From a virus: a DNA stretch of 48,644 nt. The notes below the pieces were generated by a model, which did no database searches, was not told the DNA's origin, and saw only the letters and a program-made list of their open reading frames with translations. The translations under genes and the position numbers were made by a program. The stretch is from positions 1 through 48,644 of the IMG/VR virus record IMGVR_UViG_3300030117_005760, one strand, 5' to 3'. This document shows, one piece after another, positions 4,147-36,006 of this stretch (position 1 is the stretch's first letter; the number at the start of each line of letters is the position of its first letter).

Positions 4147-5262
4147 TTATGGGTTCTCCGGTGTTGGTAATTGTGTGATTTGATATGGGTCTTGTGCGAT
4201 GGGAGTCTCTTCTGGTGGTGTGGGAACTTGACCGTAGTTGGGGTCAAAACCGAAACCGTATATTAACACTAAGTATCCAAGAGGACTGTTTTGAAAACCG
4301 TCTGGTAAATTATATGGTCCCTCTGTTGCATCACCAGTCAAGAACAATGTTTGAATAAATTGATTCAATCCATCATAACCCTGTAGTGCATTTACCTCTT
4401 CAAATGGTCGATTTAAAAGATAATCACTATCAAATTCCCCACTATAATCTGACAAAAGATTATAATATCTGAGTATTACGTCAATCGCATATTGAAAAAT
4501 TAGAAAACTTCCGGTTCCAATTCCGATAGCACCCGGTCCATAACCTGAGTGGAACAAACCGTCATTTGCGTAATTCATTTGCATAAGCCATTCATAAAAT
4601 TCAGGAAAATATTGTTGAAGAAGTTCAGCGGGAACTGCTCCATATGTGTCATTTTCAGGATTCCCTGCCCACGGAATTCCAAAAGATCGCCACCCCCGCA
4701 TTGTTTTAATAATATTAAGATAATCCCCCACACTACCAGTCCATTCATAAAGTCCATTTTCTAACCCGCCATAATCTGGTTTTCCGTTGTTTGGGGGTAA
4801 TTGGGAATCTGGTTGAAAGAAAAGTTCTCCATCATAGTTTGATGAGAAAAACCAACTAGAAGGATCCGGAAGGTCTACGCCATATTCTTGGTTAAATGAT
4901 TCCCAATTCTCACGATACCAACTCGCAGAAGGTAATCCACTTGGTGGACCGTCTCCACCCGGAGGAAACAAGTCATCCATAATTTCAAACATTCTTGTCA
5001 CCAAAGTCATATCATTGTAGCCAATGATGCCATCACCATTGTAGTCAAACATATCTAAGAGGGGTTGTGGAGCATTAGTCATTGGAAACATCGGATAAGA
5101 TTCTTCGCCACTAACTCCACCAATATTCTGGTTTCGGAACATCAAGGGTAAAACTCCTTGATAAGACACTAAATTATAAAGCATAAATTGTCTAAAGAAA
5201 AAATAATCAGAGACTCCGGGTGGATTAACTTCCTCTTTTAAATATTTCTTAAAACTCTTCAT
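4147..5262 (-). CDS. Tagged EF-hand/dockerin-like protein, family member A
   Basis: 371 residues. It begins with the tag MKSFKKYLKEE, which resembles T4 capsid-targeting peptides and holds an LKE site. At about residues 65-90 comes the family core: QPLLDMFDYNGDGIIGYND, a calcium-loop pattern DxNxDGxIxxxD, then a W-x-E-N-W-E segment and LPDPSSWFF. The rest is Asn/Asp/Tyr/Gly-rich, ending in a Pro-rich tail shared with the next gene. Start and stop overlap as TGATG, so translation is coupled with the preceding gene. I infer a capsid-internal or virion-associated calcium-binding protein. A start at 5397 in the same frame was rejected because it lies in the neighbour's tail. Confidence 0.8.
   Translation of the reverse strand: MKSFKKYLKEEVNPPGVSDYFFFRQFMLYNLVSYQGVLPLMFRNQNIGGVSGEESYPMFPMTNAPQPLLDMFDYNGDGIIGYNDMTLVTRMFEIMDDLFPPGGDGPPSGLPSASWYRENWESFNQEYGVDLPDPSSWFFSSNYDGELFFQPDSQLPPNNGKPDYGGLENGLYEWTGSVGDYLNIIKTMRGWRSFGIPWAGNPENDTYGAVPAELLQQYFPEFYEWLMQMNYANDGLFHSGYGPGAIGIGTGSFLIFQYAIDVILRYYNLLSDYSGEFDSDYLLNRPFEEVNALQGYDGLNQFIQTLFLTGDATEGPYNLPDGFQNSPLGYLVLIYGFGFDPNYGQVPTPPEETPIAQDPYQITQLPTPENP
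4151..4240. repeat. 90-bp tail repeat, copy 1
   Basis: This segment, which encodes the C-terminus of family member A, matches 5266-5355 (the C-terminus of member B) at 85 of 90 bases, by my count. Both give the same peptide tail (QVPTPPEETPIAQDPYQITQ then LPTPENP). It indicates a recent tandem duplication or gene conversion. Confidence 0.9.
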
Positions 5263-7067
5263 CACGGGTTCTCTGGTGTTGGTAGTTGTGTAATTTGATA
5301 TGGGTCTTGTGCGATGGGAGTCTCTTCGGGTGGTGTGGGGACTTGACCGTAGTTGGGATCTGGAGGGAAGAAGTAAAGGTAAAGTTCCCGGAACCATTCA
5401 TACTGAAAAATATCATCAGGAACACCAAACTGATTTGTGCTTCCAGATTCAGATGTCAAAATTAGACTTTGCAAAAATCTATTTGCTCCATCAAATCCCC
5501 GAAGAGCGTCTAAGTCATTGAATGATAAACTGTTTGCAAAATCTCTAAAGCCCATCCCGTCTGGAATTTGTCCTTGGAAGTAGGCAATAGTTCCGATGGC
5601 ATCTCTGAGTGCAAATAGGATGTAGGTATCGTTTCTCGGAAAAACAGTACCCAAACCTAAACTCAATATCCCATCTCCATCATAATCTAAATTAGTAACA
5701 AGGAATTCATAAAAATCCGGAAGATATTGTTTAATGAATTCTAGGTCAGGAAGATACCCATTATATGATCCAACGCCATCGCCGTCTGCGGGACCGCTCC
5801 CAAAGCCGTTGTGTAGGGATAAAGAAATCCAATCATCAACGGTTCCCTGCCATTCGTAAAGTCCGTTTTCATATCCTCCATAACCATCTGGTCCCCCATT
5901 TCCCCCCGGAGGAAGTTGTGAATCTGGCTGGAAGAATAAATTTCCAAAGTAATCTGTTGCAAAGAACCAACTGGATGGATCAGGAAGTTCCAATCCAAAT
6001 TCTTGGTTGTAGGATTCCCAGTTCTCAAGATACCAAGCGGCGGTAGGAAGTTCATCTGGTAATCCATTTTGTTCAAAATATGGTTCTAATTGTGAAAAAA
6101 TTTCTCTAACAATGGTTGTATCATTATAACCAATAATCCCATCACCATTGTAGTCAAACAAATCTAGGAGAGGTTGTGGGGCATTAGCCATTGGGAACAG
6201 ATAACGCCCCGCAGTGGCATCGCTTTCGGGACCAAAACCTCTGGGTCTATAAAGAAGTGGAAACTCCACACCGGGCGCGCCTTCCAACAATGAACCCACA
6301 AACTGCATAAACTGTTGATAGACACTGTTATTGACACCTTCGGTGAGGTACGTTTCTTCTTTCAACTTGTTTCGATTGTGTCTGAGTCGTGAATCGTTTG
6401 TCTTACGTCGAAGAATCGCTTTCTCTCCAGATTCAGTATCCCGAATCACTACAGGACTTGTAGGATTTCTCAAAGAAAAGGATCGAATCTGATCGATCAC
6501 AGGACCGTCTTCTTCTTCCTCAATAAACTGTGACCAATGAGAATATCTCTCTTTGCCCTCTTTCATTCGTCTGAACATATCGGGCGTGAGGTCAAAAGTT
6601 CTTCCGTTGAATTTATCGAGTTCTCTCTTGTTTCGTTTCTTGCCAAGTCTTTTATCCATACCTGCGACGGTATCAAAAGAACCACTGGTGTTTGTAAAAC
6701 CAGCAGGACCGGGAACAGGAGCAACATTGGCTTCTTCGTAGATTACCTTGAAGCCTCTTTGCACATAATCGTTTGTTTTGGTTTTGTCGATGACCTCGGC
6801 TTTCTTTGTGTCTGGATTGTAGACAACAGCCTCGTCGGGGGTTTTAGTTTTTTTCAGGGCAAGAACTTTAGAACGAATCGCAGGATCAATATTCAATTCA
6901 TAACTGATTGTCTCTGGAGAGTCAACAGACTGAGAATACATCTTTGGAATTGGTGCTAAGTTGGAACCGGGATAATTATTAGAAAACTCCTCGCTGGTCA
7001 TATCGACGTTGCGAACGTTTTCTAATGCTCTAAGTTTTTCGATTAAATTCTCAAAGTGAATCATCAT
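5262..7067 (-). CDS. Two-part virion-type protein with EF-hand/dockerin-like C-terminal half, member B
   Basis: 601 residues. The first 250 or so are highly charged and include an internal tag-like stretch (HWSQFIEEEEDGP) and YLTEGVNNS, which contains LTE, a possible T4-type protease site. From about residue 250 the protein is closely related to member A: LLDLFDYNGDGIIGYND, W-x-E-N-W-E, LPDPSSWFF and the shared Pro-rich tail; a second calcium loop (DYDGDGILSLGLG) lies further on. It looks like a fusion of a separate head domain to the EF-hand family domain. The ATG is preceded by GAGAGG and overlaps the upstream stop (ATGA). Confidence 0.78.
   Translation of the reverse strand: MMIHFENLIEKLRALENVRNVDMTSEEFSNNYPGSNLAPIPKMYSQSVDSPETISYELNIDPAIRSKVLALKKTKTPDEAVVYNPDTKKAEVIDKTKTNDYVQRGFKVIYEEANVAPVPGPAGFTNTSGSFDTVAGMDKRLGKKRNKRELDKFNGRTFDLTPDMFRRMKEGKERYSHWSQFIEEEEDGPVIDQIRSFSLRNPTSPVVIRDTESGEKAILRRKTNDSRLRHNRNKLKEETYLTEGVNNSVYQQFMQFVGSLLEGAPGVEFPLLYRPRGFGPESDATAGRYLFPMANAPQPLLDLFDYNGDGIIGYNDTTIVREIFSQLEPYFEQNGLPDELPTAAWYLENWESYNQEFGLELPDPSSWFFATDYFGNLFFQPDSQLPPGGNGGPDGYGGYENGLYEWQGTVDDWISLSLHNGFGSGPADGDGVGSYNGYLPDLEFIKQYLPDFYEFLVTNLDYDGDGILSLGLGTVFPRNDTYILFALRDAIGTIAYFQGQIPDGMGFRDFANSLSFNDLDALRGFDGANRFLQSLILTSESGSTNQFGVPDDIFQYEWFRELYLYFFPPDPNYGQVPTPPEETPIAQDPYQITQLPTPENP
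5266..5355. repeat. 90-bp tail repeat, copy 2
   Basis: Partner of the repeat at 4151-4240 (85 of 90 bases identical by my count), encoding the C-terminal tail of member B. Same orientation, offset 1115 bases. Confidence 0.9.
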
Positions 7068-7444
7068 AGACCTCTCAGTGTATTTATGATTTTATTGTCC
7101 AACGGTATACGAGTTATGTCCAAACCGTCTACCTTGTCTTCGGGACAATAATTTAAATACACCAAGAAAGTTTTAAGGAAAGTATGATGTTTTTCTTCGA
7201 TGCGATTGAACAACAATTTGTTCGCCGCAGGGATTCCAAAGACATTAAAAAATGTAATGATATGATTAAGAATCAAACGCTCTTTGAGATTCCCGTTTGA
7301 TTCGTACCGATTGAAGAGTCTTTTGATGTATTTGATTCGATTGAAATCATCATTAAACTCCTCGATACCTTTACAGGCGGGATTATCATAGTGTTTCATA
7401 GCAAAAAGGACGATGTTCTCGTCGTTCAATTTATCAAAGTTCAT
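7064..7444 (-). CDS. Conserved small T4-like phage protein
   Basis: 126 residues. The pattern MNFDKLNDENIVLFAMKHYD followed by KERLILNHIITFFNVFG recalls a small all-helical protein that I remember as widely conserved in marine T4-like phages, where it sits among structural genes and has no assigned function. The N-terminus LNDE could be a variant of the tag, but the rest looks like a compact globular domain. It overlaps both neighbours by a few bases (TGATG-type coupling), so it belongs to the tagged-protein operon. Confidence 0.72.
   Translation of the reverse strand: MNFDKLNDENIVLFAMKHYDNPACKGIEEFNDDFNRIKYIKRLFNRYESNGNLKERLILNHIITFFNVFGIPAANKLLFNRIEEKHHTFLKTFLVYLNYCPEDKVDGLDITRIPLDNKIINTLRGL
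7081..7088 (-). promoter_or_regulatory. Possible late promoter box (CATAAATA)
   Basis: Reverse-strand CATAAATA, a one-base variant of the T4 late box, 13 bases before the ATG of the 5262-7067 gene. It lies inside the 3' end of the upstream gene, and its closeness to the ribosome site weakens the call. Confidence 0.3.
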
Positions 7445-7959
7445 TACACAATCGATGCAGTAATTTTAAATCCAGTTCCAACCATTTCAATATCAAAGGA
7501 GACATCCATAGCAGGAAGGGTCTTTTCATAAGGAATTTGTCCTACCATTCCCATATCATCAGCAAAATCATCTCTTTCTTCGTCGCCGGGATCTCTACCC
7601 AAAGCACGACCACCGAAGTTGAGATTCACAACGTAAGGCTCACCAGAGTTCATAGCCATATTGATATCTTTGGCATTCAGATCAAAAGAAAGTCCAGTCA
7701 TATTTAACTTGGTTCTTGCTTTTGTGATTGCTGTCACTGGATCTCTAACAATACCAGAGAGTTCAGCGTTCAGACCGGCTTCAATCATTTTGATGTTGGT
7801 TGAAGTTGGATAACCTGTCTTTTGTGACCCGTCACCCATTCCACCGAGATCAGTGCCAGTGATATCACCTACATTGGTTCTATCATTCCCCGCGTAAGCA
7901 GTGGGACCACTGTAGTATTCCTCTGAAAGTGTGTTTCTGATCTCTTTAAATGATTTCAT
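7444..7959 (-). CDS. Tagged virion-type protein, unknown function
   Basis: 171 residues. It starts with a tag-like sequence MKSFKEIRNTLSEEYYSG, in which LSE is a possible T4-type prohead protease site. A Gly/Thr/Asp-rich linker follows, and the C-terminal half looks like an alternating beta domain (PAMDVSFDIEMVGTGFKIT). Start and stop overlap the neighbours by ATGA. I do not recognise a family; a small structural or cargo protein is the most likely role. Confidence 0.72.
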   Translation of the reverse strand: MKSFKEIRNTLSEEYYSGPTAYAGNDRTNVGDITGTDLGGMGDGSQKTGYPTSTNIKMIEAGLNAELSGIVRDPVTAITKARTKLNMTGLSFDLNAKDINMAMNSGEPYVVNLNFGGRALGRDPGDEERDDFADDMGMVGQIPYEKTLPAMDVSFDIEMVGTGFKITASIV

Positions 7960-8255
7960 CTTCCAATCCTTGCCATAACAATTTTTTCAAATGCAGCCAC
8001 TTTTGAAGTGGTGACTTCCTCATTAAGTTCCAACGGAATCTTGTTGAAGTGCTTTTTAACAATTGTATTTTTTTCTTGAAGTGTTTTTGCGTTTTCTAAA
8101 ACATCCTTAGCAGCGTCATCAACGTGCTGTTGTGTCATATTAGATGGAAGATCGGGCTTAAAGCCTGACATAACCTTTTTTGCCGCCTCGATTGCGGGGT
8201 TCAAAGAACCCTTGTCTTCGCTAAACGGTCCTGAACCGAAACCATACTTGCTCAT
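7956..8255 (-). CDS. Small helical protein of the tagged-protein operon
   Basis: 99 residues, mostly helical and Lys/Ala/Glu-rich (NPAIEAAKKVMSGFKPDL), starting MSKYGFGSGPFSED. It overlaps the large fusion gene upstream and the 7444 gene downstream by ATGA. No domain is recognised. Confidence 0.68.
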   Translation of the reverse strand: MSKYGFGSGPFSEDKGSLNPAIEAAKKVMSGFKPDLPSNMTQQHVDDAAKDVLENAKTLQEKNTIVKKHFNKIPLELNEEVTTSKVAAFEKIVMARIGR

Positions 8256-10531
8256 ATTGAGCCTCCTTTGTTAAAGTATGTATCTGCAACTTCATTTACC
8301 TGTCCGGGTGTCATTTGCTTATACTTTTTTGTTCTCTCCGGAGTTCCCTCCAAAGTTCCTTTATGATATTCTTGATCGGCAGCCTCTTCCTCAGTGCTGC
8401 GTTTTGCCATATTTGTAGCGGTTCCAAAGATAACATCCTTGTAGTCATCACCATAACGACTTTTAAAACCTTTTGCTCGTTTTTTCAAACTCTTAGCGTA
8501 TTTATCACGAAGTTTGATTTCTTTCTTTGTAAGTTTTTGCTCTTCTATTCTTTCAGTTTTAATAAACTTCTTGCCGGGATCGACAATGATATGGAATTCT
8601 TTCATAAAGGGAACACCAATCAAAACTGGTGTGCCTTTATTACTACGATCATCCAGAGTAAACTTACGCTTTGGATATTTCTTACCCATAAACTCAATAT
8701 CAAGTTCGATCATTGGACGCTGCTCTTTGTTTGCAGCAACCGCACCTTGCAGAACCGTCAAGACATCAAGAAGTTCATTTTGATACTCTTCACCATTCGT
8801 TTCCCAATAAACAATACCGTCACGCACCTCATATGAGTCCGCGTGAATCGAGTTCACAACCATATTGCCTGTGTCAAACTTTGCTTCAAGATCGCCGATC
8901 TCTGGAATTGATATCATTTCTCTACGACCAACAACTGTGGGTGGATATTTCCAGTTGTCCTTGTCGAGAACGTGATCGAGGAACTCTGCGGTTACGTTTT
9001 GACCAGTTGCTTTTTCGATACCCTCGGATCCGGGTGAAGAATTTACTTCAATTACAAAGGGTTTTCTTGTTTTTCCAGAAATGGCAATATCTACTCCACA
9101 GAAGTAAGCACCAACAGCCTTGGCAGATCGTTTTGCAATTTTAGCAATTTCTTCGCTAATCTGCACTTCTTTAATATCACCACCAAGAGAGAAGTTTGTA
9201 CGGAAATCGTTTTTGACCTTTCCTCTTTCCATCACTGCGATAACTTCGCCATCCAATACGACGACTCGCATATCATTGTCAATATTAAGATATTCTTGAA
9301 GAATCAATTCTTGCTCATCATCGATTTTCATCACTGCGTCGATAGTGGACTTGAGTGATTGTTCACTTTCAAGAATAAACACGCCCTTGCCCTTGGAGCC
9401 ACGGATTGTTTTGGCAACGACAGGGAACTCTCCACCGACCTGTTCGTGAATCTCATTGATTTTTTGTGGGTCTGTAATCAGTGCGGTTCGTGGCGTGGGC
9501 AAATCTGCCTCGACCAGAGTCAATGCCGTACGATACTTGTCAGAGCAGATGTCGATGGACTCTCTGGAGTTAATCACAAAGAAACCATCCTTCTCAAAAG
9601 AAGAGATCAGGTCAAGCGTTCCGCTGTTTCCGGCTGCTGCTCCACGAACCACAACAACAGTATCGTGACGGTTTGCAACAAATTCTTCACCGTCTTTGTT
9701 AACGACCGTTCGAGTACCGTCCTCATTTTTGATGGATCGTGCGTATGGAACAAAGGCAACGAAACAATCAGTGCCTCTCTCAGCACATTCTTCTTTGATT
9801 CTTCCGGCGGTCTTCATCAAGTTGCCGTCGTTTTCTTCACTGTATCCAGAAAAAACTAAAACTTTGATTTTTTCTGGTGGGGTTTCGACCTCTTCGATGA
9901 TGTCTCCTCCAGAGACAGCCATACCCTTCCGAACATCGTCAAAGAGTTTTCGTGCCTGACGATCAGAAGCAGCAGAGGGAACACCTTGTCGGAATGATCG
10001 GAAATCACCTTCGGCGGCAAACTTTCTCATTTTGGATGCAGACATTCCGGTAACATCGGTTGCATCCGGATCGCGTTGTCCTGCACTCACGACCTCAAAA
10101 GATTCAAGATTAAATGATTTGTCTGGATCGGGGTGATTGACATATGGGCGAATTGTTCTTTCAAATTCTGCCGTTCTGTCACCTCCAACGACAACAGTGA
10201 CATCTTTATATCCTTGATCGGCAAGATAGCCAATGGCATCAAAGACTGTGCGTACCGAAGTATTATAAATAACATTAGCCCCTTTAAAAAGGGACTTCAT
10301 ATGTTTTGTTTTCGTTCTTGAATCGAGCGGATTCTTTTTCTTATCTTGAGAATGGCTGGCAAAGATAAAATTGTCAGCCCTTCGTTTTTTCGCCTCTGCG
10401 AGAACTTTGTTGATTAACAGTTCGTGACCAGATGTGGGTGGATTGAAGCGTCCGAAGGTTAGAACCGCCTTCTTACCTCTTCGCTCCTCCACAATAGCAT
10501 AGTGATTCACTCCAACATCGTGTGGTTGCAT
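8252..10531 (-). CDS. Three-domain fusion: nucleotidyltransferase + RimK-like ATP-grasp ligase + retropepsin-like protease
   Basis: 759 residues from the ATG at 10531, which has AGGAGG 11 bases upstream; a GTG at 10543 overlaps that site and is less likely. Domain 1 (about 15-175) is a cytidylyl/NMN-adenylyltransferase-like fold with TFGRFNPPTSGH (T/HxGH motif) and GMSASKMR. Domain 2 (about 220-520) is an ATP-grasp ligase of the RimK type: VVAKTIRGSKGKGV for nucleotide binding and FVIEVNSSPG for metal binding. Domain 3 (about 535-660) matches the RimK-associated aspartic protease family: GRREMISIPEIG, AKFDTGN (catalytic DTG) and DDRSNKGTPVLIGVPFM. RimK adds glutamates to protein tails and RimB-type proteases act with it. 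A tail of about 100 basic residues follows. Substrates are unknown. Confidence 0.85.
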   Translation of the reverse strand: MQPHDVGVNHYAIVEERRGKKAVLTFGRFNPPTSGHELLINKVLAEAKKRRADNFIFASHSQDKKKNPLDSRTKTKHMKSLFKGANVIYNTSVRTVFDAIGYLADQGYKDVTVVVGGDRTAEFERTIRPYVNHPDPDKSFNLESFEVVSAGQRDPDATDVTGMSASKMRKFAAEGDFRSFRQGVPSAASDRQARKLFDDVRKGMAVSGGDIIEEVETPPEKIKVLVFSGYSEENDGNLMKTAGRIKEECAERGTDCFVAFVPYARSIKNEDGTRTVVNKDGEEFVANRHDTVVVVRGAAAGNSGTLDLISSFEKDGFFVINSRESIDICSDKYRTALTLVEADLPTPRTALITDPQKINEIHEQVGGEFPVVAKTIRGSKGKGVFILESEQSLKSTIDAVMKIDDEQELILQEYLNIDNDMRVVVLDGEVIAVMERGKVKNDFRTNFSLGGDIKEVQISEEIAKIAKRSAKAVGAYFCGVDIAISGKTRKPFVIEVNSSPGSEGIEKATGQNVTAEFLDHVLDKDNWKYPPTVVGRREMISIPEIGDLEAKFDTGNMVVNSIHADSYEVRDGIVYWETNGEEYQNELLDVLTVLQGAVAANKEQRPMIELDIEFMGKKYPKRKFTLDDRSNKGTPVLIGVPFMKEFHIIVDPGKKFIKTERIEEQKLTKKEIKLRDKYAKSLKKRAKGFKSRYGDDYKDVIFGTATNMAKRSTEEEAADQEYHKGTLEGTPERTKKYKQMTPGQVNEVADTYFNKGGSI

Positions 10532-10602
10532 ATGCTTGATCACCTCCTAGTTCCGGTTTTGATTTGAATGTAGCCACCCACATCTGGTCACGAACTGTAA
10601 AA

Positions 10603-10725
10603 TCATTTGTTCCAAGGAAGAAATGATCTAGCCCATTCCCAGAGCGGTTTGCCCATCAAAGCACCAAGTGTAAAAGTAATAAGTGTGTGTGCGATAAATC
10701 CGTAAGTCGTAGTTACAAAATCCAT
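10603..10725 (-). CDS. 40-residue single-TM microprotein
   Basis: Starts MDFVTTTYGFIAHTL after a GGAGAAAG ribosome site and contains one hydrophobic segment of about 20 residues (FIAHTLITFTLGALMG), then PLWEWARSFLPWNK. Probably an inner-membrane peptide. It lies alone between the fusion gene and the Lys-rich gene pair. Confidence 0.6.
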   Translation of the reverse strand: MDFVTTTYGFIAHTLITFTLGALMGKPLWEWARSFLPWNK

Positions 10726-10762
10726 ATCTTTCTCCTTTGGTGCTAGAGGTTAATCCTCAATC

Positions 10763-10897
10763 TTATTTAGTAGAATTTTTCTTGCGAGTTGCTTTTTTCT
10801 TCACAACCGTAGGTTTTTCTGACGCTGGTTCTGTCTCTTCAATGAACCAGAGAACACCAGTCTTTATTAATTTAAAAATATTTTTAAGCCGGTTCAT
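10763..10897 (-). CDS. 44-residue Lys-rich microprotein (copy B of a pair)
   Basis: Begins MNRLKNIFKLIKTGVLWFIEE, an amphipathic helix that resembles the virion tags, and ends in the basic tail KKKATRKKNSTK. The tail nearly matches that of the upstream gene (KKKKATRKKKSTK). The start overlaps that gene by ATGA. The basic tail suggests nucleic-acid or capsid-interior binding. Confidence 0.6.
   Translation of the reverse strand: MNRLKNIFKLIKTGVLWFIEETEPASEKPTVVKKKATRKKNSTK
10765..10802. repeat. 38-bp direct repeat, copy 1
   Basis: Matches 10896-10933 with a single mismatch; each copy encodes the basic C-terminal tail of one of two adjacent genes. Offset 131 bases, same orientation. Suggests tandem duplication of the tail segment. 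Confidence 0.85.
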
Positions 10898-11085
10898 TTA
10901 GTAGACTTTTTCTTGCGAGTTGCTTTTTTCTTCTTGGGTGTTGGGGCAGGAACAGGTGTTTCAACAACCTTTCCGAAATCCGGTCCAAACCCAAATTTGG
11001 CAAGCATTTTTCTTCCGTAAGCAGAACTGCATTTTTCGTATCCACCGGGAACTGCAAATTTTTTATATTCATTTGGAAGTTTCAT
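10894..11085 (-). CDS. 63-residue protein with Lys-rich tail (copy A of a pair)
   Basis: MKLPNEYKKFAVPGGYEKC opens a small domain of about 40 residues, followed by a Pro linker (VPAPTP) and a basic tail. I chose the ATG at 11085, which overlaps the upstream stop as ATGA, rather than a TTG at 11094. The KKFAVPGGYEKCSSAYGRK portion is compact and may be folded. Function unknown; basic tail as in the neighbour. Confidence 0.62.
   Translation of the reverse strand: MKLPNEYKKFAVPGGYEKCSSAYGRKMLAKFGFGPDFGKVVETPVPAPTPKKKKATRKKKSTK
10896..10933. repeat. 38-bp direct repeat, copy 2
   Basis: Partner of 10765-10802 (one mismatch), coding for the basic tail of the upstream paralogue. Confidence 0.85.
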
Positions 11086-12278
11086 TTTGTCCAATCCTTT
11101 GCTACTGTAAAGTTTGCTCGGGAAAACTCCATACGATCTACAAGTTTCACAGCGTTCCCGCTCTTAGAAATTGCCACAAACCCTTCGGGATCTGTGACTC
11201 GATAGCCGCTATCAGTTTTAATGAACGACGGCATAGTATTTAGTGCCTGCAACTTCTTTAGAACAATCATCTTTGCCTGTGCAAGATAATAGTGTGCAGT
11301 AAAAATTTGATCCAAGTTTCGTGAGATTTTTTTCAAATACGAAAGCATTTCATTCATTTCTTGCTCGACTCTTTCTCTCGCCCGGTCGGTTTTCAATCCT
11401 GCAATCTTTGTTTCAAACCGTGACTTCATCATCGCAGCAAAACCCTTTGATGTTCCCTGCTCGACACCACCACGAACATTCTGATTTAGGTAAATTTTAA
11501 TAATATCCTTCATCGGACCACTAACAATTTCTTTAATAATCTTGCGTTCTGATTTTGTAATTCTTTCTGTGCCTTTGATGAAACGTCGAATCTGTTCTTC
11601 TTGTTTTGCCGTCATAGTTGCCTTGCCAGAAACATCACGGTATGCAGCATCTTGATACCAAACCTTGTTTGTCTTTTTCAAATTAGAAACATCTGCACCA
11701 AACGACGCGGCTAGATTGGCGATGGTGTTTCCCGAGTATGTCGTATGAAACACAATACCCATATTTGATGATTTAATTTTCTTTGCCAAATCACTGTTCG
11801 CCGGAACCGCGTAGGTGATTGTATTGGGTGTAAATGAAAGCATCGACTCTCCCCCAATCGTTTGACTAGAAAGATCGCCCTTTGTGTAGAGCATATCTCC
11901 TTGAAGAACACCAGTGATTCCCAAACCTTTCAAATTGGCAAGAGCAACTTTTAATTTATCAGCCAGACCGCCACCGTGGTTGGCATCGATGTCTGCGTTG
12001 GTGTAGTTGATTTTTGGTGTTTTGTTGAAGAGTGATTTTGTCGCAACAAAGAACTTACCGTTTTCTGGATTGATTCCAGCGAAGACGGCAGGCGCACCAT
12101 CCCACTTTACAGTCACATCAATCGGACTCTTTACATCGCCCTTCAACATATCAGTCAAAGACTTAAGAAAAGCAATCGCTTCACTCACACCGACTGCACC
12201 TCGATTGAACAACTCGTCCTCAAGATGCTCAAGGTGCAAATTCTTTTGTTCAGTTAAAAAACGAGAAAACTCAATCAT
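11082..12278 (-). CDS. Tagged protein with nucleic-acid-ligase/capping-type nucleotidyltransferase motifs
   Basis: 398 residues. The N-terminus MIEFSRFLTEQ is a virion tag with an LTE site. The next region carries what look like the ordered motifs of covalent nucleotidyltransferases (DNA/RNA ligases and capping enzymes): motif I KWDG (Lys58, TVKWDGAPAVF), motif III-like GVLQGDMLY (about 123-131), IIIa-like GIVFHTTYSG, motif IV-like DPEGFVAI and motif V-like AVKLVDR. Such enzymes form a Lys-AMP or Lys-GMP intermediate and join or cap nucleic acid ends. Insertions between III and IV are larger than usual. I believe relatives exist in cyanophages as unnamed proteins. The tag implies capsid delivery. 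The start has GGAGG. Confidence 0.68.
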   Translation of the reverse strand: MIEFSRFLTEQKNLHLEHLEDELFNRGAVGVSEAIAFLKSLTDMLKGDVKSPIDVTVKWDGAPAVFAGINPENGKFFVATKSLFNKTPKINYTNADIDANHGGGLADKLKVALANLKGLGITGVLQGDMLYTKGDLSSQTIGGESMLSFTPNTITYAVPANSDLAKKIKSSNMGIVFHTTYSGNTIANLAASFGADVSNLKKTNKVWYQDAAYRDVSGKATMTAKQEEQIRRFIKGTERITKSERKIIKEIVSGPMKDIIKIYLNQNVRGGVEQGTSKGFAAMMKSRFETKIAGLKTDRARERVEQEMNEMLSYLKKISRNLDQIFTAHYYLAQAKMIVLKKLQALNTMPSFIKTDSGYRVTDPEGFVAISKSGNAVKLVDRMEFSRANFTVAKDWTK

Positions 12279-12280
12279 AA

Positions 12281-13390
12281 TTATCCTCCGGGTGGTGGTG
12301 CAAATCCCGGTGGGGGTGGAGTAGGGGGTGGCGTGGGTGGTCCCTTTGGTGGTTCTTTACCATCCTCTTGTCCCCAATTCGATAAAAGTTGAAGAAGGTC
12401 TTCAAAGTTTGCTCCGTCCTCTCCCCAATCGGAAAGAATTTGAAGTAACTTTTCATAATCACTTTGTTCACCGTCGCCGTTTGGATTGGGTGGGATTTCA
12501 TCGATAATTCCGGCATCGACAAGAATTTGGAAATACTGTTGTAAGTATTCAAAAACAGTCAGTCCTTGTTGTGCTTCGGCATCTTGGGCTTCAGGTGAAT
12601 ACATCACATCTGCTAAGAAGCCAAGAACTCCACCTTCGCTATTCATAATTTCGATCAAATCGTTATCGGTCAAATCAACTCCAACATCTCCCATATATCT
12701 GATGGTTCCATTAAGAATAATCGCAGTATACATATCAGAAGTTGTATCTGGGTTTGCGGGAGTATAGAAGGGATCAAATACACCATCTCCATTCAAATCC
12801 CCAAATTGCTCAAGTAATTCACCCTGTTCTGTGTGAATGTTCCTAAAGAAATTAGTAAGCATAAGACCTTGAATGAAGGAGACGAAGGCTCTAATATCTT
12901 TTGATAAACTAAATGAGGATATTCCCCCCTCCTGATTTGGGACTCGATCTGCGTCCGGAAGAGTAGTAGTGCCTCCCGGTGGAACTTGGAAAAAACTAAA
13001 CGGATCAGGCAAATCAAGTCCGAATTTTTCGTTGAGTTCTTGCCAATTTTCTCTAAATTCATTTGCAAACATAAATGGAATATCAAATACATCATTCTCG
13101 GAGGCATATTGCTCCATTTGCTCTCTGATGATTTGGACGTACATCATATCATTTGGACCGATGTAACCATCACCATTATAGTCAAACATATCGAGCAAAA
13201 ATTGTGGTGCGCCAACAATTACATAGGAATACCCTCCTGCTGGTGCGGTTCCTGAAAGGTTTGCCAACATACTAGAATATCCAACACCAGCCATCGAAAA
13301 TAATCCCTGTCCACCAGCCAGTAAAATATAAGAGTAAAGATCACCTTCACCCTCTAAATCCTCTTTTAAAAATCGTTTGAAACTTTTCAT
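12281..13390 (-). CDS. Tagged EF-hand/dockerin-like protein with planctomycete-style tail motifs, member C
   Basis: 369 residues beginning with tag MKSFKRFLKED (LKE). The family core follows: FLLDMFDYNGDGYIGPNDMM, W-x-E-L-N-E-K-F-G and LPDPFSFF. A second calcium loop FGDLNGDGVFDPF appears near residue 195. Near the C-terminus two short repeats, KLLQILSDWGED and DLLQLLSNWGQED, match the last helix of planctomycete secreted dockerins, which also end in LSxWG. The protein finishes with a Pro/Gly-rich tail. Coupled with the next gene; the start has AGAGG. Confidence 0.8.
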   Translation of the reverse strand: MKSFKRFLKEDLEGEGDLYSYILLAGGQGLFSMAGVGYSSMLANLSGTAPAGGYSYVIVGAPQFLLDMFDYNGDGYIGPNDMMYVQIIREQMEQYASENDVFDIPFMFANEFRENWQELNEKFGLDLPDPFSFFQVPPGGTTTLPDADRVPNQEGGISSFSLSKDIRAFVSFIQGLMLTNFFRNIHTEQGELLEQFGDLNGDGVFDPFYTPANPDTTSDMYTAIILNGTIRYMGDVGVDLTDNDLIEIMNSEGGVLGFLADVMYSPEAQDAEAQQGLTVFEYLQQYFQILVDAGIIDEIPPNPNGDGEQSDYEKLLQILSDWGEDGANFEDLLQLLSNWGQEDGKEPPKGPPTPPPTPPPPGFAPPPGG

Positions 13391-13393
13391 TAA

Positions 13394-14371
13394 TTATCCT
13401 CTAGGTGGTGGTGCTTCACCACCGACTGGTGGTTCCTCTGGTCGCTGTGGAGGTGGTGGATTTTCGGGTGGTTGTAAAATTTGTTTTCCAAAAAATTTCA
13501 AAATGTTTGGAGGAATTCCGTCAGGCACATCATCCCCAAGAACATAAATTCTTCTCAGTCCTTGTAACATACCTTCATACCCTTCTGGTGCTGTCCATTC
13601 ATAACCAGTTGAATTATACAAAGAGCGATATATGGAGGCGACTCCAAAATCACCGTTGGGACCACCAAATCCTGCTTCCAAATCCCCATCACCATTGTAG
13701 TCGTAACGTCTGAGCATTTCTAAAGCAAACTCAGCACCAAACAGTGCTGCTAAACCGCGAACACCATCGAGATCGCCAAACCAAATAAAAAGAGAGTTGA
13801 GGAGATAATTAATCCAACTGCCCGATGACGATATTTCTTGTTCGTAATCAACTGGATTTGCTCCGTATGGATATGCAAAATCTGAGTCCGGGATTTCAAC
13901 ATATTCTCCATTGAACAGAACCAGATTGAAACCGTTTGGATCAGGTAGATCAAGACCATATTGTTCATTAAGATCCTGCCACATCTCTCGATAAATTGCA
14001 GGTGTCATTATAGGTGGGAATCCTTCAAAAGAGTCATTTTCAATCATATAATCAAATATGGTTCTTCCAACAATATGGGCAAGAGTAACATCATTTGCAC
14101 CAATAATTCCATCACCATTAAAATCCATTGCATCAATCATAACTTGAGGTGCGTTGACCAGTGGAAATTCACCACCTAATAAACCATTTGAACTTGTATC
14201 AACGCTCTGATTATCAGCGGTAAGCGTAGCAAACCCAAAGCCACCCCACGCATAATAATACCAAGTCGCAGAGTCAGCCGACTCTTGTTCATATCCCATT
14301 AATGCTTGCAACAAATCAAGATCACCCGGACCTTGGTACTCTTCTTTTAAAAATCGTTTGAAACTTTTCAT
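13394..14371 (-). CDS. Tagged EF-hand/dockerin-like protein, member D
   Basis: 325 residues, tag MKSFKRFLKEEYQGPGD (LKE). The core is MIDAMDFNGDGIIGANDVT with M-W-Q-D-L-N-E-Q-Y-G and LPDPNGFN, and a second loop RRYDYNGDGDLEAG lies around residue 225. It ends in a Pro-rich tail (PPENPPPPQRPEEPP). The gene is immediately downstream of the 14372 gene with no gap and has a GAGAGG site. It is a paralogue of members A, B, C, E and F, and no enzymatic motif is seen. Confidence 0.8.
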   Translation of the reverse strand: MKSFKRFLKEEYQGPGDLDLLQALMGYEQESADSATWYYYAWGGFGFATLTADNQSVDTSSNGLLGGEFPLVNAPQVMIDAMDFNGDGIIGANDVTLAHIVGRTIFDYMIENDSFEGFPPIMTPAIYREMWQDLNEQYGLDLPDPNGFNLVLFNGEYVEIPDSDFAYPYGANPVDYEQEISSSGSWINYLLNSLFIWFGDLDGVRGLAALFGAEFALEMLRRYDYNGDGDLEAGFGGPNGDFGVASIYRSLYNSTGYEWTAPEGYEGMLQGLRRIYVLGDDVPDGIPPNILKFFGKQILQPPENPPPPQRPEEPPVGGEAPPPRG

Positions 14372-15493
14372 TCAATACCTCTCAATAAATGCAGGCAACT
14401 CTTTACCCGTTTGAACGTAGGTTCTAAATCTTACACGATACTGTGTCTTGTCTTTGTTTGAGTCGGCATCGTAGCGGAAACGAATACTAAACACTTCCAG
14501 ACCATCTGCAACGAGAATGATCTTTGGATTGCCACCCTCCTGACCAATACGCCAGATGATTGCTTTGTTTTTTGCAGAGGTGGCAAGTCCTCTTTTCAAT
14601 GCCTCGAATGTTGCTCGGTTGAATGTAATCGATTTCGACCCTGAGCCTTTGATAATCTCAACATCTTCTTCTTGACCTCGACCGGCTTTGATAAAACCAT
14701 CAGCCAAAGTCGCAGCGTTTCTCACGTTGGAAAGCCAGTTACCAGAGAACTTCTTTGAAACAAAATCAAAAACACTACGAACGGCAGGGAACATAATTGC
14801 TTTATCTTTCTGAATCAACGGATCATCACGACCTGTATAGACTCCACCAAGTTGACTCACTGCCTTTTCAACAACCTTGAGAGCAGGCTTTACTTCAATA
14901 CCAAAAGTTGCAAACGCACTTCTCAAAGATTGCACAGAGTCTCGTCCAGAGAATTGTGCAATTTGTGTTTCTTTCTTTGTTTCATATTTCAAAGAAATCC
15001 CTGCACGACGAACCTCTGTTCCGTTGACATAAACATCAACATCAGACTTGGTTGCTGATTGTGCAAGTGTGCCAACTGGACGAATCACAACATTGTCGGG
15101 ACGATTGTTTGAAATCACATCGTCAGCCAAGTCACCAATCGTTCCACGCTTGACTGCGGTGATTGAAGACTTTACCATATCCTGCACTTCTTTTGAGCCG
15201 CGATAGCCGGGAGTATTCAACTGCACCAGAGCAGCACCGGGAAGAGCAGCGGTGTCAAAGAGAACGACATCGACTTGATCATCGCCCTCATCAACCTCCC
15301 ACTGTCGATTTCCTGCAAAGTATTGTGCCATTACATCCTCAACGGATTGTGGAGTGAGAGCCATCGCGGAGCCATCATCATAGCGATCTGTAAATCTAGC
15401 CACCATTGCAGCAGAGATTACAAATTCAAAAACATCGCCCTTGTTATACTTGGCACGCTCTTCGTTAATTAACTTTCTTGAATTGATGTTCAC
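14372..15493 (-). CDS. Tagged conserved phage protein, possible nuclease fold
   Basis: 373 residues from a GTG that overlaps the upstream stop (GTGA) and has GAGG upstream. The N-terminus MNINSRKLINEERAKYNKGD is tag-like, with INE. The segment SDVDVYVNG followed by AGISLKYET has the spacing of a PD-(D/E)XK core (Asp, then S/E-x-Lys), and GDVFEFVISAAM could be its first helix. This nuclease reading is weak. The C-terminal half includes KAIIWRIGQ and a beta-rich RFRYDADSN region. Related proteins probably occur in marine T4-like phages. Confidence 0.6.
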   Translation of the reverse strand: MNINSRKLINEERAKYNKGDVFEFVISAAMVARFTDRYDDGSAMALTPQSVEDVMAQYFAGNRQWEVDEGDDQVDVVLFDTAALPGAALVQLNTPGYRGSKEVQDMVKSSITAVKRGTIGDLADDVISNNRPDNVVIRPVGTLAQSATKSDVDVYVNGTEVRRAGISLKYETKKETQIAQFSGRDSVQSLRSAFATFGIEVKPALKVVEKAVSQLGGVYTGRDDPLIQKDKAIMFPAVRSVFDFVSKKFSGNWLSNVRNAATLADGFIKAGRGQEEDVEIIKGSGSKSITFNRATFEALKRGLATSAKNKAIIWRIGQEGGNPKIILVADGLEVFSIRFRYDADSNKDKTQYRVRFRTYVQTGKELPAFIERY

Positions 15494-15711
15494 GGTTTTA
15501 CCTCGTCTACGATTTCGTACTTTTGTCTTTCAAGTTTGCGAATCTCATTTCGATTTTCTGCATACTTGTAGTCACCATTTCTAATGTGTTGCATAATGAA
15601 GATTGTTTTTTTAAGTTCGTCTGCCATTTTCTCTGCGTCACGAACAACATCTTTGAATTGACCGATAGCCTCTTGCATTTGTCGTTCTTCCTCTTCGTTC
15701 AACCAAAACAT
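15490..15711 (-). CDS. 73-residue coiled-coil protein
   Basis: Almost entirely charged helix (EEEERQMQEAIGQF and RNEIRKLERQKYEIV), so a coiled coil or adaptor is likely. It overlaps the PAP2 gene and the 14372 gene by one to four bases and is thus translated with them. No family recognised. Confidence 0.65.
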   Translation of the reverse strand: MFWLNEEEERQMQEAIGQFKDVVRDAEKMADELKKTIFIMQHIRNGDYKYAENRNEIRKLERQKYEIVDEVKP

Positions 15712-16400
15712 TAGTATGCCTCCTTACCATATACGGGTGCAGGTAGATCACCATATCGATATTTTTTCTTTGGTTTTACAAGTTCTTCCTCTGGTTGGTA
15801 TTTATTTAATAATTGTTCTGCGAGTTCTCTACCCGCTTCAACATCACTCATAAAGTGAACACCCAACTCGACTCTTGAAATCGCATTATCATTTGCAACT
15901 TTATCAAGTTCTTTCTTATGCTCTGGATATTTTCTTGATAAAATACCTGCGATTGTATAACCAACTGCCGTGTGGTTGCTTGGATAACTTGGAGTGTCAA
16001 CTTTAACGTGGGGAGTCAAAGTCTTTCCGTAAAATTCAGCAGTTTCAAGGGGTCTAAGACGATTGAACGAATATTTCATATTTAAGGTGGTTGTGTCAAT
16101 TTGTCTTTTAATCTCTTCGATCAAATCGATTTCTCCACCGACGATCTCCGACATCATTTTCATATAGTTAACATCTAAATCTTTCAGATACTTAAGTTTT
16201 TCATCTGACATAATCATCGCATCTTGAACATCTTTTAGTTCCATTTGTGTGGTTCTGGATGTGAGTTTTGGTGGTGACTCTATTTTTATATTTTTTGCAT
16301 CAGGAAACAATGGAGTGGGTCGCTTCATCATAATTCTATGTTTTTGTGATGCTGCTTCGTTTAGAATTTTCTGATTGATAAAGTTATTAAAACGGATCAT
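15711..16400 (-). CDS. Tagged PAP2/vanadium-haloperoxidase-type phosphatase
   Basis: 229 residues. All three PAP2 motifs are present: K-x6-RP (KYSFNRLRP, Lys109, Arg116), PSxH (YPSNHTAVG, Ser141, His143) and SR-x5-H-x3-D (SRVELGVHFMSD, Arg176, His182, Asp186). This family hydrolyses phosphate monoesters or lipid phosphates, and some members are haloperoxidases. No signal peptide or TM segment is visible, so it resembles the soluble class. Instead the N-terminus MIRFNNFINQKILNEA is a virion-type tag with LNE-A, a perfect T4 prohead-protease site pattern. I infer delivery in the capsid. The start overlaps the 16397 gene by ATGA. Confidence 0.82.
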   Translation of the reverse strand: MIRFNNFINQKILNEAASQKHRIMMKRPTPLFPDAKNIKIESPPKLTSRTTQMELKDVQDAMIMSDEKLKYLKDLDVNYMKMMSEIVGGEIDLIEEIKRQIDTTTLNMKYSFNRLRPLETAEFYGKTLTPHVKVDTPSYPSNHTAVGYTIAGILSRKYPEHKKELDKVANDNAISRVELGVHFMSDVEAGRELAEQLLNKYQPEEELVKPKKKYRYGDLPAPVYGKEAY

Positions 16401-17086
16401 TTCAAGAATTCCTTTATAATTTCTACGTTTACCTTCACACGCTTGTCCATATCCTCCCCCACAATGGGTGTCTCGCTCGTCACAGACGGCGTGATGCCTT
16501 TGGTGGCAAGATAGTCTCCGAACATTCCCTGATCGTCAGAGTCAATTCTACCGTCACCAAAAAGATTAAAATACTCTGAAATTAGATTTACGATACGAGA
16601 GCCTACATCGCCTCTGTCGCTCCAGACAAAAGCATAGCCCTCCCCCCTGTATGGATCCTCTTGCAAGTCTAAGAAGCCACCAGAGGCGAGCGGGAGCCAT
16701 TTGCTTTCTGCTGCCAAAAGTCGAGAGGCTTCTTGGGATGGTTTATGGGGAATATTGTGATTTGGGTTTTCACCACGGGGATCTTCGTGCTGCCCGCTCT
16801 GAAAAGTCTCTTTTGAAAAAATAGGCAAATATGTAATATTTGCATTTTGTGGTTTATTATTTTTAACAAATTCGAGAAGCCCAACCCATCCAGCAGGCTC
16901 ATCACCTTGAAACGCGGAAGCGATCATTTTGTTTGGAAGTTCATCTTTAAAAATTAAAGGTACAAAAAAAGTGTGACCGTTAATATCTGCACGGCGGTGT
17001 GTAGAGGAAACAGCATCTTCAAATTCTTGAAGATATTTTTCTACTTTATTTACTTCTTCTGTAATAAATGTACGAAAATCCTTCAT
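16397..17086 (-). CDS. Tagged virion-type protein, unknown function
   Basis: 229 residues, tag MKDFRTFITEEVNKVEK with an ITE site. The body has no recognisable domain; it includes WVGLLEFVKNNKPQN, a His-containing loop (QHEDPRGENPNHNIPH) and an EF-like stretch LFGDGRIDSDDQGMFGDYL, then KVNVEIIKEFLK at the end. It is the first gene of the tagged cluster on this strand, just downstream of the PEP-CTERM gene. Confidence 0.7.
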   Translation of the reverse strand: MKDFRTFITEEVNKVEKYLQEFEDAVSSTHRRADINGHTFFVPLIFKDELPNKMIASAFQGDEPAGWVGLLEFVKNNKPQNANITYLPIFSKETFQSGQHEDPRGENPNHNIPHKPSQEASRLLAAESKWLPLASGGFLDLQEDPYRGEGYAFVWSDRGDVGSRIVNLISEYFNLFGDGRIDSDDQGMFGDYLATKGITPSVTSETPIVGEDMDKRVKVNVEIIKEFLK

Positions 17087-34497: not shown

Positions 34498-34784
34498 TGC
34501 CAACGTATGAATATCAATGTAAAAAATGCAATCATCAATTTGAATCTTTTCAGTGGGTGGACTCCAGACTTCAACCTACAAAGGAACCTTGTCCTTCTTG
34601 TGCAGAAAAAGCCGTGAAGCAAGGTTTCTTTACTGCTCCCTCGATGACAGTCGATGACAATCACCGAGTGGATAAGCCTCACAATGCCAACGGCTTTCAG
34701 GAAGTAATGGAGCGTGTGACGAATGCAGCCGGAGTCAAGAATACGAAGTACGAGAAAGAACTTCGAGCCAGACATATGTTCTAA
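34497..34784 (+). CDS. FmdB-type zinc-ribbon protein
   Basis: 95 residues. MPTYEYQCKKCNHQFESFQ is the FmdB family start, with CxxC pairs at KKCN and CPSC (about 18 residues apart) forming a zinc ribbon. The C-terminal half (GFQEVMERVTNAAG) is helical and ends KYEKELRARHMF. FmdB-like ribbons occur in T4-like phages; function is not established. Confidence 0.85.
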   Translation: MPTYEYQCKKCNHQFESFQWVDSRLQPTKEPCPSCAEKAVKQGFFTAPSMTVDDNHRVDKPHNANGFQEVMERVTNAAGVKNTKYEKELRARHMF

Positions 34785-34794
34785 AGGAAGAAAG

Positions 34795-36006
34795 ATGAAG
34801 ATTGATCCACGTTTAAACGAAGAAATTTTTAATCCTGACGATCCACTCAATCCACTTGGAATGCCCGGAGTACCTAATAATCCGGAGAATCCACTCTTTC
34901 CGCCGGACACTCCTACGTTGCCCACACCAGATGGTCCTCCATTTAAACTCCCACCTCCAGTACCCGGAATGCCAAACCCTTGGAATCCAGATGGTGTGCC
35001 TGATGATGTTCCAGACGTTCCTAAAGGCACTCCGGGATTTATTCCAGATGATTTTCCTGATGGATTGCCGGACAACTTTCCCGATCGTGGAACTCAAGGA
35101 CACTGGTGGTGGCGTTGGATAAGTCAGTGGAAAAAATACTATGAAGACTTGATTAATTTGATTACTAGTAAAATAAGTGATCTTCAAAATGAGTTGATAG
35201 AAATTCAAGAACTGATTGCTGATATGGAAGATGGCGGGGTAGGCAACGATGATCCACAAATGAGAAGAGCGAGGGCTACCTATAATAGAATACGCGCACA
35301 AATTGCTTTTCTACAACAACAATTAGCAGATGTAAATCGGCAATTGCGATTAATCTTAGCAGAACTCGCCGAGTTCTGGAGTACGATTAAAAGAGGCGTT
35401 CCCACTACTTGGAAAAAGATCAAAAGAACAATCAAAAGATGGTTTGAAAGACGTAGAAGAAGTAGAAGGAAACCTCCCTTCCCACCAAGAAGAAGAGGTC
35501 CGCCCGGATCTGCATCTGTAGATGAAATTTGGGACAGCCTTTTTGATACAGATTTTTCTGGTTCAATGTCATACACGGGTCTTCAATGGGCTGTTATCAT
35601 TGAGGCTATGTTCCTTGATGGTGTTGTTGGTGGTGGTTATACATCAGGTGATCAAAGCGATTATGCTATTTTTCAAAATATGATTGATGGTGTGTATGAA
35701 TTCTTTACAGAATTCAATGATCCAAATCAAACATACTCATACGATGATTTTATTGCAATCCTTGATGGATGGATCGCAGATGGAGAGCAATACAATAATC
35801 CCTTCTCACCACCAGATGAGCCGCAAGGTTTAGAGGGTCCACAACAAGGTAAAGAATTAAATATCAAAGTTTCTTCTACCCCCACAACACCCACAATTAC
35901 GCCATCAGCACCCCCGATGGGTGGACAAGGAGCAAGTCCAGAAGGTGAGTTTGCCAAGGCATTTGCTCGCTACAACAAGGGTATTCAAGGAAAAGGTATT
36001 CGATGA
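34795..36006 (+). CDS. Tagged Pro-rich virion-type protein with basic core
   Basis: 403 residues. I chose the ATG at 34795, after AAGGAAG, which gives the tag MKIDPRLNEEIF (LNE). Then comes a long Pro/Asn/Asp-rich region (about 12-100), a Trp-rich WWWRWISQWKK, a coiled-coil segment (SKISDLQNELIEIQELIADM), a strongly basic stretch RRRRSRRKPPFPPRRRG and a C-terminal EF-like region (DTDFSGSMSYTGLQ). The basic core suits contact with packaged DNA. The frame start at 34723 was rejected. Confidence 0.72.
   Translation: MKIDPRLNEEIFNPDDPLNPLGMPGVPNNPENPLFPPDTPTLPTPDGPPFKLPPPVPGMPNPWNPDGVPDDVPDVPKGTPGFIPDDFPDGLPDNFPDRGTQGHWWWRWISQWKKYYEDLINLITSKISDLQNELIEIQELIADMEDGGVGNDDPQMRRARATYNRIRAQIAFLQQQLADVNRQLRLILAELAEFWSTIKRGVPTTWKKIKRTIKRWFERRRRSRRKPPFPPRRRGPPGSASVDEIWDSLFDTDFSGSMSYTGLQWAVIIEAMFLDGVVGGGYTSGDQSDYAIFQNMIDGVYEFFTEFNDPNQTYSYDDFIAILDGWIADGEQYNNPFSPPDEPQGLEGPQQGKELNIKVSSTPTTPTITPSAPPMGGQGASPEGEFAKAFARYNKGIQGKGIR

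What the first reader, a model, noticed from the sequence alone, without database searches (positions are those of the whole stretch)
8252..10531. Fusion of nucleotidyltransferase, RimK-like ligase and retropepsin-like protease in a phage operon
RimK-type ATP-grasp ligases are often next to or fused with a DTG protease, but an N-terminal TxGH nucleotidyltransferase in the same chain is, to my knowledge, unusual. Key motifs of all three look intact. The chain could activate, add and remove a peptide or nucleotide tag on a host or virion protein, for instance Glu-tagging of a ribosomal or capsid protein.
Basis: partly seen in the sequence, partly recalled or inferred. Interest (0 to 1): 0.8.

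Follow-up and report, generated by a model that had tools for sequence, protein, structure and literature searches.

The report
Phage enzyme polyprotein, probably head-packaged
A marine virus of bacteria makes one long protein that strings together a nucleotide-transferring enzyme, a glutamate-adding enzyme and its matching glutamate-removing protease, and the sequence suggests the virus cuts this chain apart and carries the pieces inside its head to be injected into the host.

Summary
One unbroken minus-strand ORF (8252-10531, 759 aa) encodes a TxGH nucleotidyltransferase (NTase), a RimK ATP-grasp ligase, a RimB-type (PF05618) DTG protease and a helical tail. The same architecture recurs in at least seven other metagenomic phage contigs. 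AlphaFold gives three confident domains; RimK matches solved RimK structures at Z about 31. RimK-RimB fusion alone is common in marine T4-like phages (at least 578 loci) and was first seen in 2008; the NTase in front is restricted to a small clade.

I disagree with the idea of one concerted tag writer/eraser. Standalone phage RimK-RimB proteins carry a T4-type capsid-targeting sequence (50 of 57, against 19 of 263 other ORFs). In the fused proteins every module junction keeps an [I/L/M]xE motif, the T4 gp21 prohead-protease site, although neighbouring residues vary, and in the model these motifs lie in or beside disordered linkers. Modules are gained, lost or split off at these sites. Neighbouring genes, including an RNA-ligase-fold partner (DUF6267), carry canonical targeting sequences.

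Best reading: a precursor polyprotein of head-internal enzymes, cut during capsid maturation and ejected with the DNA; RimK-RimB would adjust glutamylation of a host protein, perhaps ribosomal S6. Packaging and cleavage are inferred, not shown.

The parts
8252..10531 (-). Whole gene, 759 aa: NTase - RimK - RimB - helical tail
10484..10495 (-). Predicted processing site 1, A-I13-V-E15|E16 (VVE, LSE or LRE in orthologues) in the disordered N-terminus
9896..10477 (-). Nucleotidyltransferase domain, residues 19-212; TSGH and SASKMR motifs
9890..9901 (-). Predicted processing site 2, I211-I-E213|E214, beginning of the disordered linker 214-219
8942..9874 (-). RimK-type ATP-grasp glutamate ligase domain, residues 220-530
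8552..8941 (-). RimB-type retropepsin-like protease domain (PF05618), residues 531-660, D553TGN
8537..8548 (-). Predicted processing site 3, I662-E-E664|Q665 (LEE, LKE, LDE, LTE, LSE, MDE in orthologues), disordered 664-666
8255..8536 (-). Helical C-terminal module, residues 666-759 (RYGDDYKDVIFGTATNMAK; EGTPERTKKYKQMTPGQ)
   Evidence: (weak phrog_12788)
11082..12278 (-). DUF6267 partner gene, MIEFSRFLTE|Q targeting sequence; RNA-ligase fold, K58WDG
12281..13390 (-). EF-hand-type gene with canonical targeting sequence MKSFKRFLKE|D
13394..14371 (-). EF-hand-type paralogue, MKSFKRFLKE|E
14372..15493 (-). Gene with [LI]xE site near N-terminus, MNINSRKLINE|E
15711..16400 (-). Gene with [LI]xE site near N-terminus, MIRFNNFINQKILNE|A
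16397..17086 (-). Gene with canonical targeting sequence MKDFRTFITE|E
7444..7959 (-). Gene with [LI]xE site, MKSFKEIRNTLSE|E
4147..5262 (-). EF-hand-type paralogue, MKSFKKYLKE|E
5262..7067 (-). Gene whose C-terminal EF-hand module is fused behind NKLKE|ETYLTE|G; the L004 homologue lacks it (a second fusion at such a site)

Best explanation
The protein is a precursor polyprotein of a T4-like marine phage. Its modules (nucleotidyltransferase, RimK-RimB glutamate ligase/deglutamylase, small helical module) are joined at linkers that carry the [L/I]xE motif cut by T4-type prohead proteases. It most likely enters the prohead core with the neighbouring internal proteins, is cut during head maturation, stays in the head with the DNA and is ejected into the host. 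There RimK adds glutamates to a host protein (ribosomal S6 is the precedent) and RimB trims them, altering translation at the start of infection; the NTase acts separately, perhaps with the RNA-ligase-fold neighbour. Shown here: domains, intact motifs, conservation, site positions, and targeting sequences on relatives and neighbours. Inferred: packaging, cleavage, ejection and substrate.
For: (1) Standalone phage RimK-RimB: 50 of 57 distinct ORFs have a T4-IP-like N-terminus against 19 of 263 other ORFs in the same loci (Fisher p 7e-35; sequences are related, so p overstates); 48 of 57 fit [FYW]..[FY][LI].E, i.e. the positions 4, 7 (targeting) and 8, 10 (processing) mapped in T4 IPIII (PMC9026906). 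(2) [L/I/M]xE at 6/7 N-termini, 7/7 NTase ends, 7/7 RimK starts, 7/7 RimB ends, 6/6 tail starts; shuffles expect 1.1-2.8 (p up to 0.005). (3) AlphaFold: pLDDT under 50 at 1-17, 214-219 and 664-666, in or next to those sites. (4) Modules move at the sites: L089 has RimK-RimB alone starting MNRPITLDE|EK; L084, L085 and L108 insert modules between sites; L001 inserts about 83 aa ending MGE|A before the tail. (5) Neighbours carry such N-termini: 10 of 13 genes at 4147-16400 have [LI]xE in the first 22 residues against 10 of 45 elsewhere (p 5e-4); 26 of 36 DUF6267 relatives are canonical. (6) Canonical gp21-type protease in Mosig and G021, both with targeted RimK-RimB. (7) The YerA41 'ribosomal protein modification protein' g112, which sits by the RNR genes like the GN1 RimK-RimB ORF, was found by LC-MS/MS in purified particles (PMC7354516).
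Against: The target's own N-terminus (MQPHDVGVNHYAIVE|E) has the processing half of the signal but not the two aromatic targeting residues. No gp21 homologue is in this 48.6-kb fragment or in the contigs of its closest orthologues. [LIVM]xE occurs about 20 times in the chain, also inside folded domains. The YerA41 particle list also holds replication enzymes, so contamination is possible, and the homologous GN1 protein lacks the targeting sequence. Some other phages have RimK-RimB without the signal (L123, L176, L178, L184). No proteomics, cleavage or substrate data exist for this phage.
Confidence: 0.5

Rival explanations
1. A single multifunctional enzyme made during infection and working uncut in the host cytoplasm: the NTase activates something, RimK adds glutamate and RimB removes it.
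For: One conserved ORF with all active sites intact; RimK and RimB are a known functional pair (PMC11957791); some NTase relatives (e.g. L016, L028) and some phage RimK proteins have no targeting sequence.
Against: Linkers keep protease-type sites while other residues vary; NTase and RimK-RimB occur apart far more often than together and in other combinations; standalone RimK-RimB relatives carry capsid-targeting N-termini.
Confidence: 0.22
2. The protein is packaged or core-associated but acts on virion proteins: RimK-RimB glutamylates or trims head or core proteins during assembly.
For: Targeting sequences place the family in the prohead core; RimB prefers stretches of six or more Glu (PMC11957791).
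Against: No candidate virion substrate was identified; the T4 precedent for a packaged enzyme (Alt) acts on the host (PMC9026906).
Confidence: 0.13
3. The [L/I]xE motifs are incidental features of acidic linkers; modules are fused merely by gene adjacency and nothing is cut.
For: Linkers are Glu-rich and the motif is short (about one per 38 residues).
Against: Shuffles of the same linkers give 1.1-2.8 of 6-7 against 6-7 observed at each of five junction classes; the same motif follows the targeting residues in standalone relatives.
Confidence: 0.15

Closest known systems
T4 internal head proteins IPI/IPII/IPIII and Alt (capsid targeting sequence plus gp21 processing)
   Same: Relatives and neighbours have N-termini fitting T4 positions 4, 7, 8 and 10, and L/I-x-E cut sites; Alt is a packaged host-modifying enzyme.
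   Different: T4 internal proteins are single modules; here several enzyme modules are strung together with a site at each joint. The target's own N-terminus lacks the aromatic targeting residues.
Phage RimK with C-terminal DUF785/PF05618 in marine T4-like contigs (Monier 2008, PMC2530865)
   Same: Same RimK-RimB order, family and environment.
   Different: No NTase module and no mention of capsid targeting or processing sites in the passages read.
Bacterial RimABK system and RimBK hybrids (PMC11957791)
   Same: RimK ligase coupled to a retropepsin-like RimB deglutamylase.
   Different: The bacterial hybrids described there have RimB at the N-terminus; here the order is RimK-RimB, and there is an NTase and a tail.
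PHROG 395/3041 cyanophage cytidyltransferases and PHROG 455 DUF6267-NTase fusions
   Same: Same NTase domain and the same DUF6267 neighbour.
   Different: None was seen with RimK-RimB; they carry other modules or stand alone.
T4 gp22/gp67/gp68, core proteins cut into many pieces by gp21
   Same: One precursor, several L/I-x-E cuts.
   Different: Those are scaffold peptides mostly lost from the head, not folded enzymes.

Membership tests
RimK alpha-L-glutamate ligase family (TIGR00768) | Score above the curated family cut-off | tested here: met
   185.5 bits against cut-off 143.4
RimK alpha-L-glutamate ligase family (TIGR00768) | RimK fold and ATP/Mg residues | tested here: met
   Z 31.5 over 287 aa with 7qys, 30.8 with the RimK-RpsF complex 5zk6; K332, K374, E413, D481, E495, N497 invariant in 8 divergent phage sequences
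30S ribosomal protein S6--L-glutamate ligase (NF007764 equivalog) | Score above equivalog cut-off | tested here: not met
   113.8 bits against cut-off 331; the substrate S6 is therefore not assured
RimB / PF05618 retropepsin-like protease | Pfam gathering score and DTG motif | tested here: met
   43.7 bits against 27; D553TG invariant
RimB / PF05618 retropepsin-like protease | Cleavage of poly-Glu tails | not testable with these tools
   needs an enzyme assay
Bacterial RimBK hybrid as described in PMC11957791 | RimB domain N-terminal to RimK | tested here: not met
   order is RimK-RimB
TxGH/HxGH nucleotidylyltransferase superfamily (phage cytidyltransferase PHROG 395/3041) | TxGH and S-x-S-x-x-R motifs, profile match | tested here: met
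   E 1e-53 and 2e-47; TxGH and the S, K, R of SxSKxR conserved in 26 sequences; Pfam CTP_transf_like 20.3, just under 21
TxGH/HxGH nucleotidylyltransferase superfamily (phage cytidyltransferase PHROG 395/3041) | Nucleotide substrate (CTP, NMN or other) | not testable with these tools
   only weak PDB sequence matches, to PPAT and NMNAT
T4-type capsid-targeted internal head protein | Aromatic targeting residues 6 and 3 residues before the cut Glu | tested here: not met
   met in 48 of 57 standalone RimK-RimB and 26 of 36 DUF6267, not in the target or its fused orthologues; the claim is therefore 'works like', not 'is'
T4-type capsid-targeted internal head protein | L/I-x-E processing site after the N-terminal leader | tested here: met
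   IVE|E in the target, VVE, LSE or LRE in orthologues
T4-type capsid-targeted internal head protein | gp21-type prohead protease in the same genome | tested here: inconclusive
   absent from the 48.6-kb fragment; present in Mosig, G009, G010, G021
T4-type capsid-targeted internal head protein | Found in the virion in processed form | not testable with these tools
   only the YerA41 relative was found in particles, processing unknown

The most novel reading that the evidence does not exclude
Marine T4-like phages use the prohead protease as a polyprotein-processing protease: several unrelated enzymes (nucleotidyltransferase, glutamate ligase with its own deglutamylase, RNA-ligase-like and kinase modules) are made as exchangeable strings, imported into the head, cut apart at [L/I]xE joints and injected as a ready-made kit that rewrites host translation before any phage gene is expressed.
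Probability: 0.35. Interest if true: 0.85.

Novelty: new variant of a known kind. Interest (0 to 1): 0.64.

Why it matters
Phage rimK has been known from the sea since 2008 without an explanation of when or where it acts. Capsid-targeting N-termini on nearly all standalone phage RimK-RimB proteins make a definite, cheap prediction: the enzyme is in the virion and enters with the DNA, as T4 Alt does. If so, glutamylation of a host protein would be among the first acts of infection by an abundant class of marine phages. The module-joint pattern would also extend prohead proteolysis from leader removal to the release of several enzymes from one precursor, and gives a simple rule (targeting leader plus [L/I]xE joints) for finding other head-packaged enzymes.

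Tried and rejected
Frame break or assembly artefact: rejected, several contigs carry the same single frame. Host-encoded gene: the window is a virus record with marine T4-like relatives for its peptidase and DUF7207 genes. A genome-wide scan of T4 and Mosig with a strict targeting pattern recovered T4 IPI and IPII, but it did not report the Mosig RimK-RimB start (probably its ribosome-site filter) and gave a few unrelated hits, so it was used only as a rough control. A gp21 homologue or gp23 in the window or in its closest contigs: none found, but all are fragments. Whether RimK-RimB without the targeting signal lies in phages with a different protease: three such contigs (L123, L178, L184) have a divergent 639-699 aa PF03420 protein, suggestive but few. 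Fold search of the full model tested only the RimK part well; NTase and RimB folds rest on sequence profiles, motifs and model confidence, not on a structural match. PDB profile search for the NTase gave only weak PPAT/NMNAT matches after spurious S-layer ones. Literature: one search combining RimK, virion, ejected and bacteriophage brought up no paper on RimK in virions among those listed; the Melnitz paper text does not mention ATP-grasp or cytidyltransferase.

Full report
OBSERVATION. The gene is on the minus strand, 10531 down to 8252, 759 codons in one frame with a good ribosome site. Profile searches find, in order, a cytidyltransferase-type NTase, a RimK ATP-grasp domain, a PF05618 protease domain and a tail with a weak PHROG match. 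Orthologues with the same order and no frame break are in L001-L004 (94-61% identity) and, with additional inserted modules, in L084, L085=L086 and L108; L110 is a truncated copy. No GenBank phage record has a place covering 80% of the chain, so the three-domain fusion is real and rare.

ACTIVE SITES AND FOLD. The motifs T33SGH36 and SASKMR169 (NTase), K332/K374/E413/D481/E495/N497 (RimK) and D553TG (RimB) are invariant in the five aligned orthologues, and the RimK and RimB ones also in eight divergent phage RimK-RimB sequences. AlphaFold2 with 72 relatives gives mean pLDDT 83.7, with the three domains mostly at 85-95. The RimK part superposes on bacterial RimK, including the RimK-RpsF complex, at Z 30.8-31.5 over 286-287 residues. 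It passes the RimK family cut-off, but not that of the S6-ligase equivalog, so S6 is a precedent and not a conclusion.

WHERE THE MODULES OCCUR. This agrees with the 2008 report of marine phage rimK with a C-terminal DUF785 (PMC2530865). The NTase alone, or joined to DUF5824, a zeta/AAA_33 kinase, DUF6321 or DUF6267, is also widespread. In Melnitz the corresponding modules are separate genes. The combination in the window is thus one of several arrangements of exchangeable modules.

TARGETING SEQUENCES. In T4 the first 10 residues of IPIII direct proteins into the head: residues 4 and 7 target, 8 and 10 serve processing, and gp21 cuts after L/I-x-E (PMC9026906). Standalone phage RimK-RimB begin MENFKSFITE|Q, MKAPKFREFISE|A, MQVQKFNDYLTE|A and so on: 50 of 57 distinct sequences fit such a pattern against 19 of 263 other ORFs in the same loci, and 48 of 57 fit a stricter form. 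These sequences are related, so the p-value of 7e-35 overstates independence. DUF6267, the gene next to the NTase in most loci, begins likewise in 26 of 36. In the window itself six genes have canonical leaders (5262-4147, 12278-11082, 13390-12281, 14371-13394, 17086-16397 on minus, 38361-39287 on plus) and others have the cut motif alone.

JOINTS. In the fused proteins each joint keeps [L/I/M]xE while its surroundings vary: after RimB the seven sequences read IEE|Q, LEE|E, LKE|E, LDE|Y, LTE|A, LSE|A and MDE|E. Shuffling the same linker residues gives 1.1-2.8 hits against 6-7 observed for each of five junction classes (p at most 0.005). The junction windows were chosen by me after seeing the motif, so these p-values are descriptive. 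In the model the sites lie in or next to the disordered stretches 1-17, 214-219 and 664-666, and no conserved site lies between RimK and RimB, in line with RimK-RimB staying together. Gain and loss happen at the sites: L089 has RimK-RimB as its own gene beginning MNRPITLDE|EK; L084, L085 and L108 insert further modules between sites; L001 inserts about 83 residues ending MGE|A before the tail. In the same window, gene 7067-5262 has an EF-hand module behind KLKE|ETYLTE|G that its L004 homologue lacks. Relatives such as L017, L031, L036 and L071 also have [LM]xE just behind the NTase, before the basic module that in Melnitz is a separate gene with its own leader-like start.

MECHANISM PROPOSED. 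Precursor enters the prohead core; a gp21-type protease cuts at the joints; NTase, RimK-RimB and tail remain with the DNA and are ejected; RimK-RimB changes glutamylation of a host protein. Supporting context: gp21-type proteases exist in Mosig and in G021, whose RimK-RimB have the leader, and the RimK protein of Yersinia phage YerA41 was detected in purified particles (PMC7354516). The YerA41 list also contains replication enzymes, and the homologous GN1 protein lacks the leader.

LIMITS. The target's own leader has the cut motif but not the aromatic targeting residues, so I do not file it as a T4-type internal protein; it may reach the head by another route, or not at all. No protease gene is in the fragment or in its closest contigs. 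The motif is short and also occurs inside the domains. Packaging, cleavage, ejection and substrate are inferred.

PARTNER. DUF6267 is modelled with pLDDT 88.6, and all 50 listed structural matches are RNA or DNA ligases, the best being Naegleria RNA ligase at Z 9.3 over 181 residues; K58, D60 and G61 of the KxDG motif are invariant in 41 sequences. Foldseek alone was not significant, so this is good but not conclusive. With the P-loop kinase modules fused to other NTases it hints at an RNA-repair-like kit, which is a speculation.

Noticed in passing
11082-12278 (-): DUF6267 (PF19782) next to the NTase is modelled with an RNA/DNA-ligase fold and an invariant KxDG motif; probably an uncharacterised covalent nucleotidyltransferase, often with a capsid-targeting leader.
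   Followed up: partly
4147-5262, 5262-7067 (C-terminal part), 12281-13390, 13394-14371 (-), 38361-39287 (+): A family of EF-hand-type proteins (DYNGDG or FNGDG motif); the four minus-strand ones are alignable paralogues and four of the five start with MKSFK(R/K)(F/Y)L(K/S)E; perhaps an expanded set of internal head proteins.
   Followed up: partly
5262-7067 (-): EF-hand module fused to the C-terminus of a different gene behind KLKE|ETYLTE|G; the L004 homologue (4763-5569) lacks the module.
   Followed up: partly
34723-38361 (+): Three plus-strand genes share an N-terminus M(K/R)(I/L)(D/N)(P/Q)R(L/F)(N/D)EE; two others (43550, 45208) share MYFNPP...FYH.
   Followed up: no
36755-37885 (+) and 41889-42974 (-): Weak matches to endolysin/internal virion lysozyme and to tail-associated lysin PHROGs.
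   Followed up: no
L123, L176, L178, L184: RimK-RimB proteins without the T4-type leader (three share LLEKF(I/V)FKG); three of the contigs (L123, L178, L184) have a divergent 639-699 aa PF03420 protease protein, so leader and protease type may co-vary.
   Followed up: partly
L042, L075, L023, L071: Long NTase polyproteins (700-1170 aa) with repeated internal leader-like motifs (e.g. FEKLFFKEE, EKFESLFLEE, EEFESLFEQ) between DUF5824, kinase, basic and other modules.
   Followed up: partly
L004 7968-9470 (-): A 500-aa extracellular-type protein ending in a dockerin-like GDANADGVVGFLDLTTILGNWG repeat, reminiscent of planctomycetal proteins; a possible host clue for this phage group.
   Followed up: no
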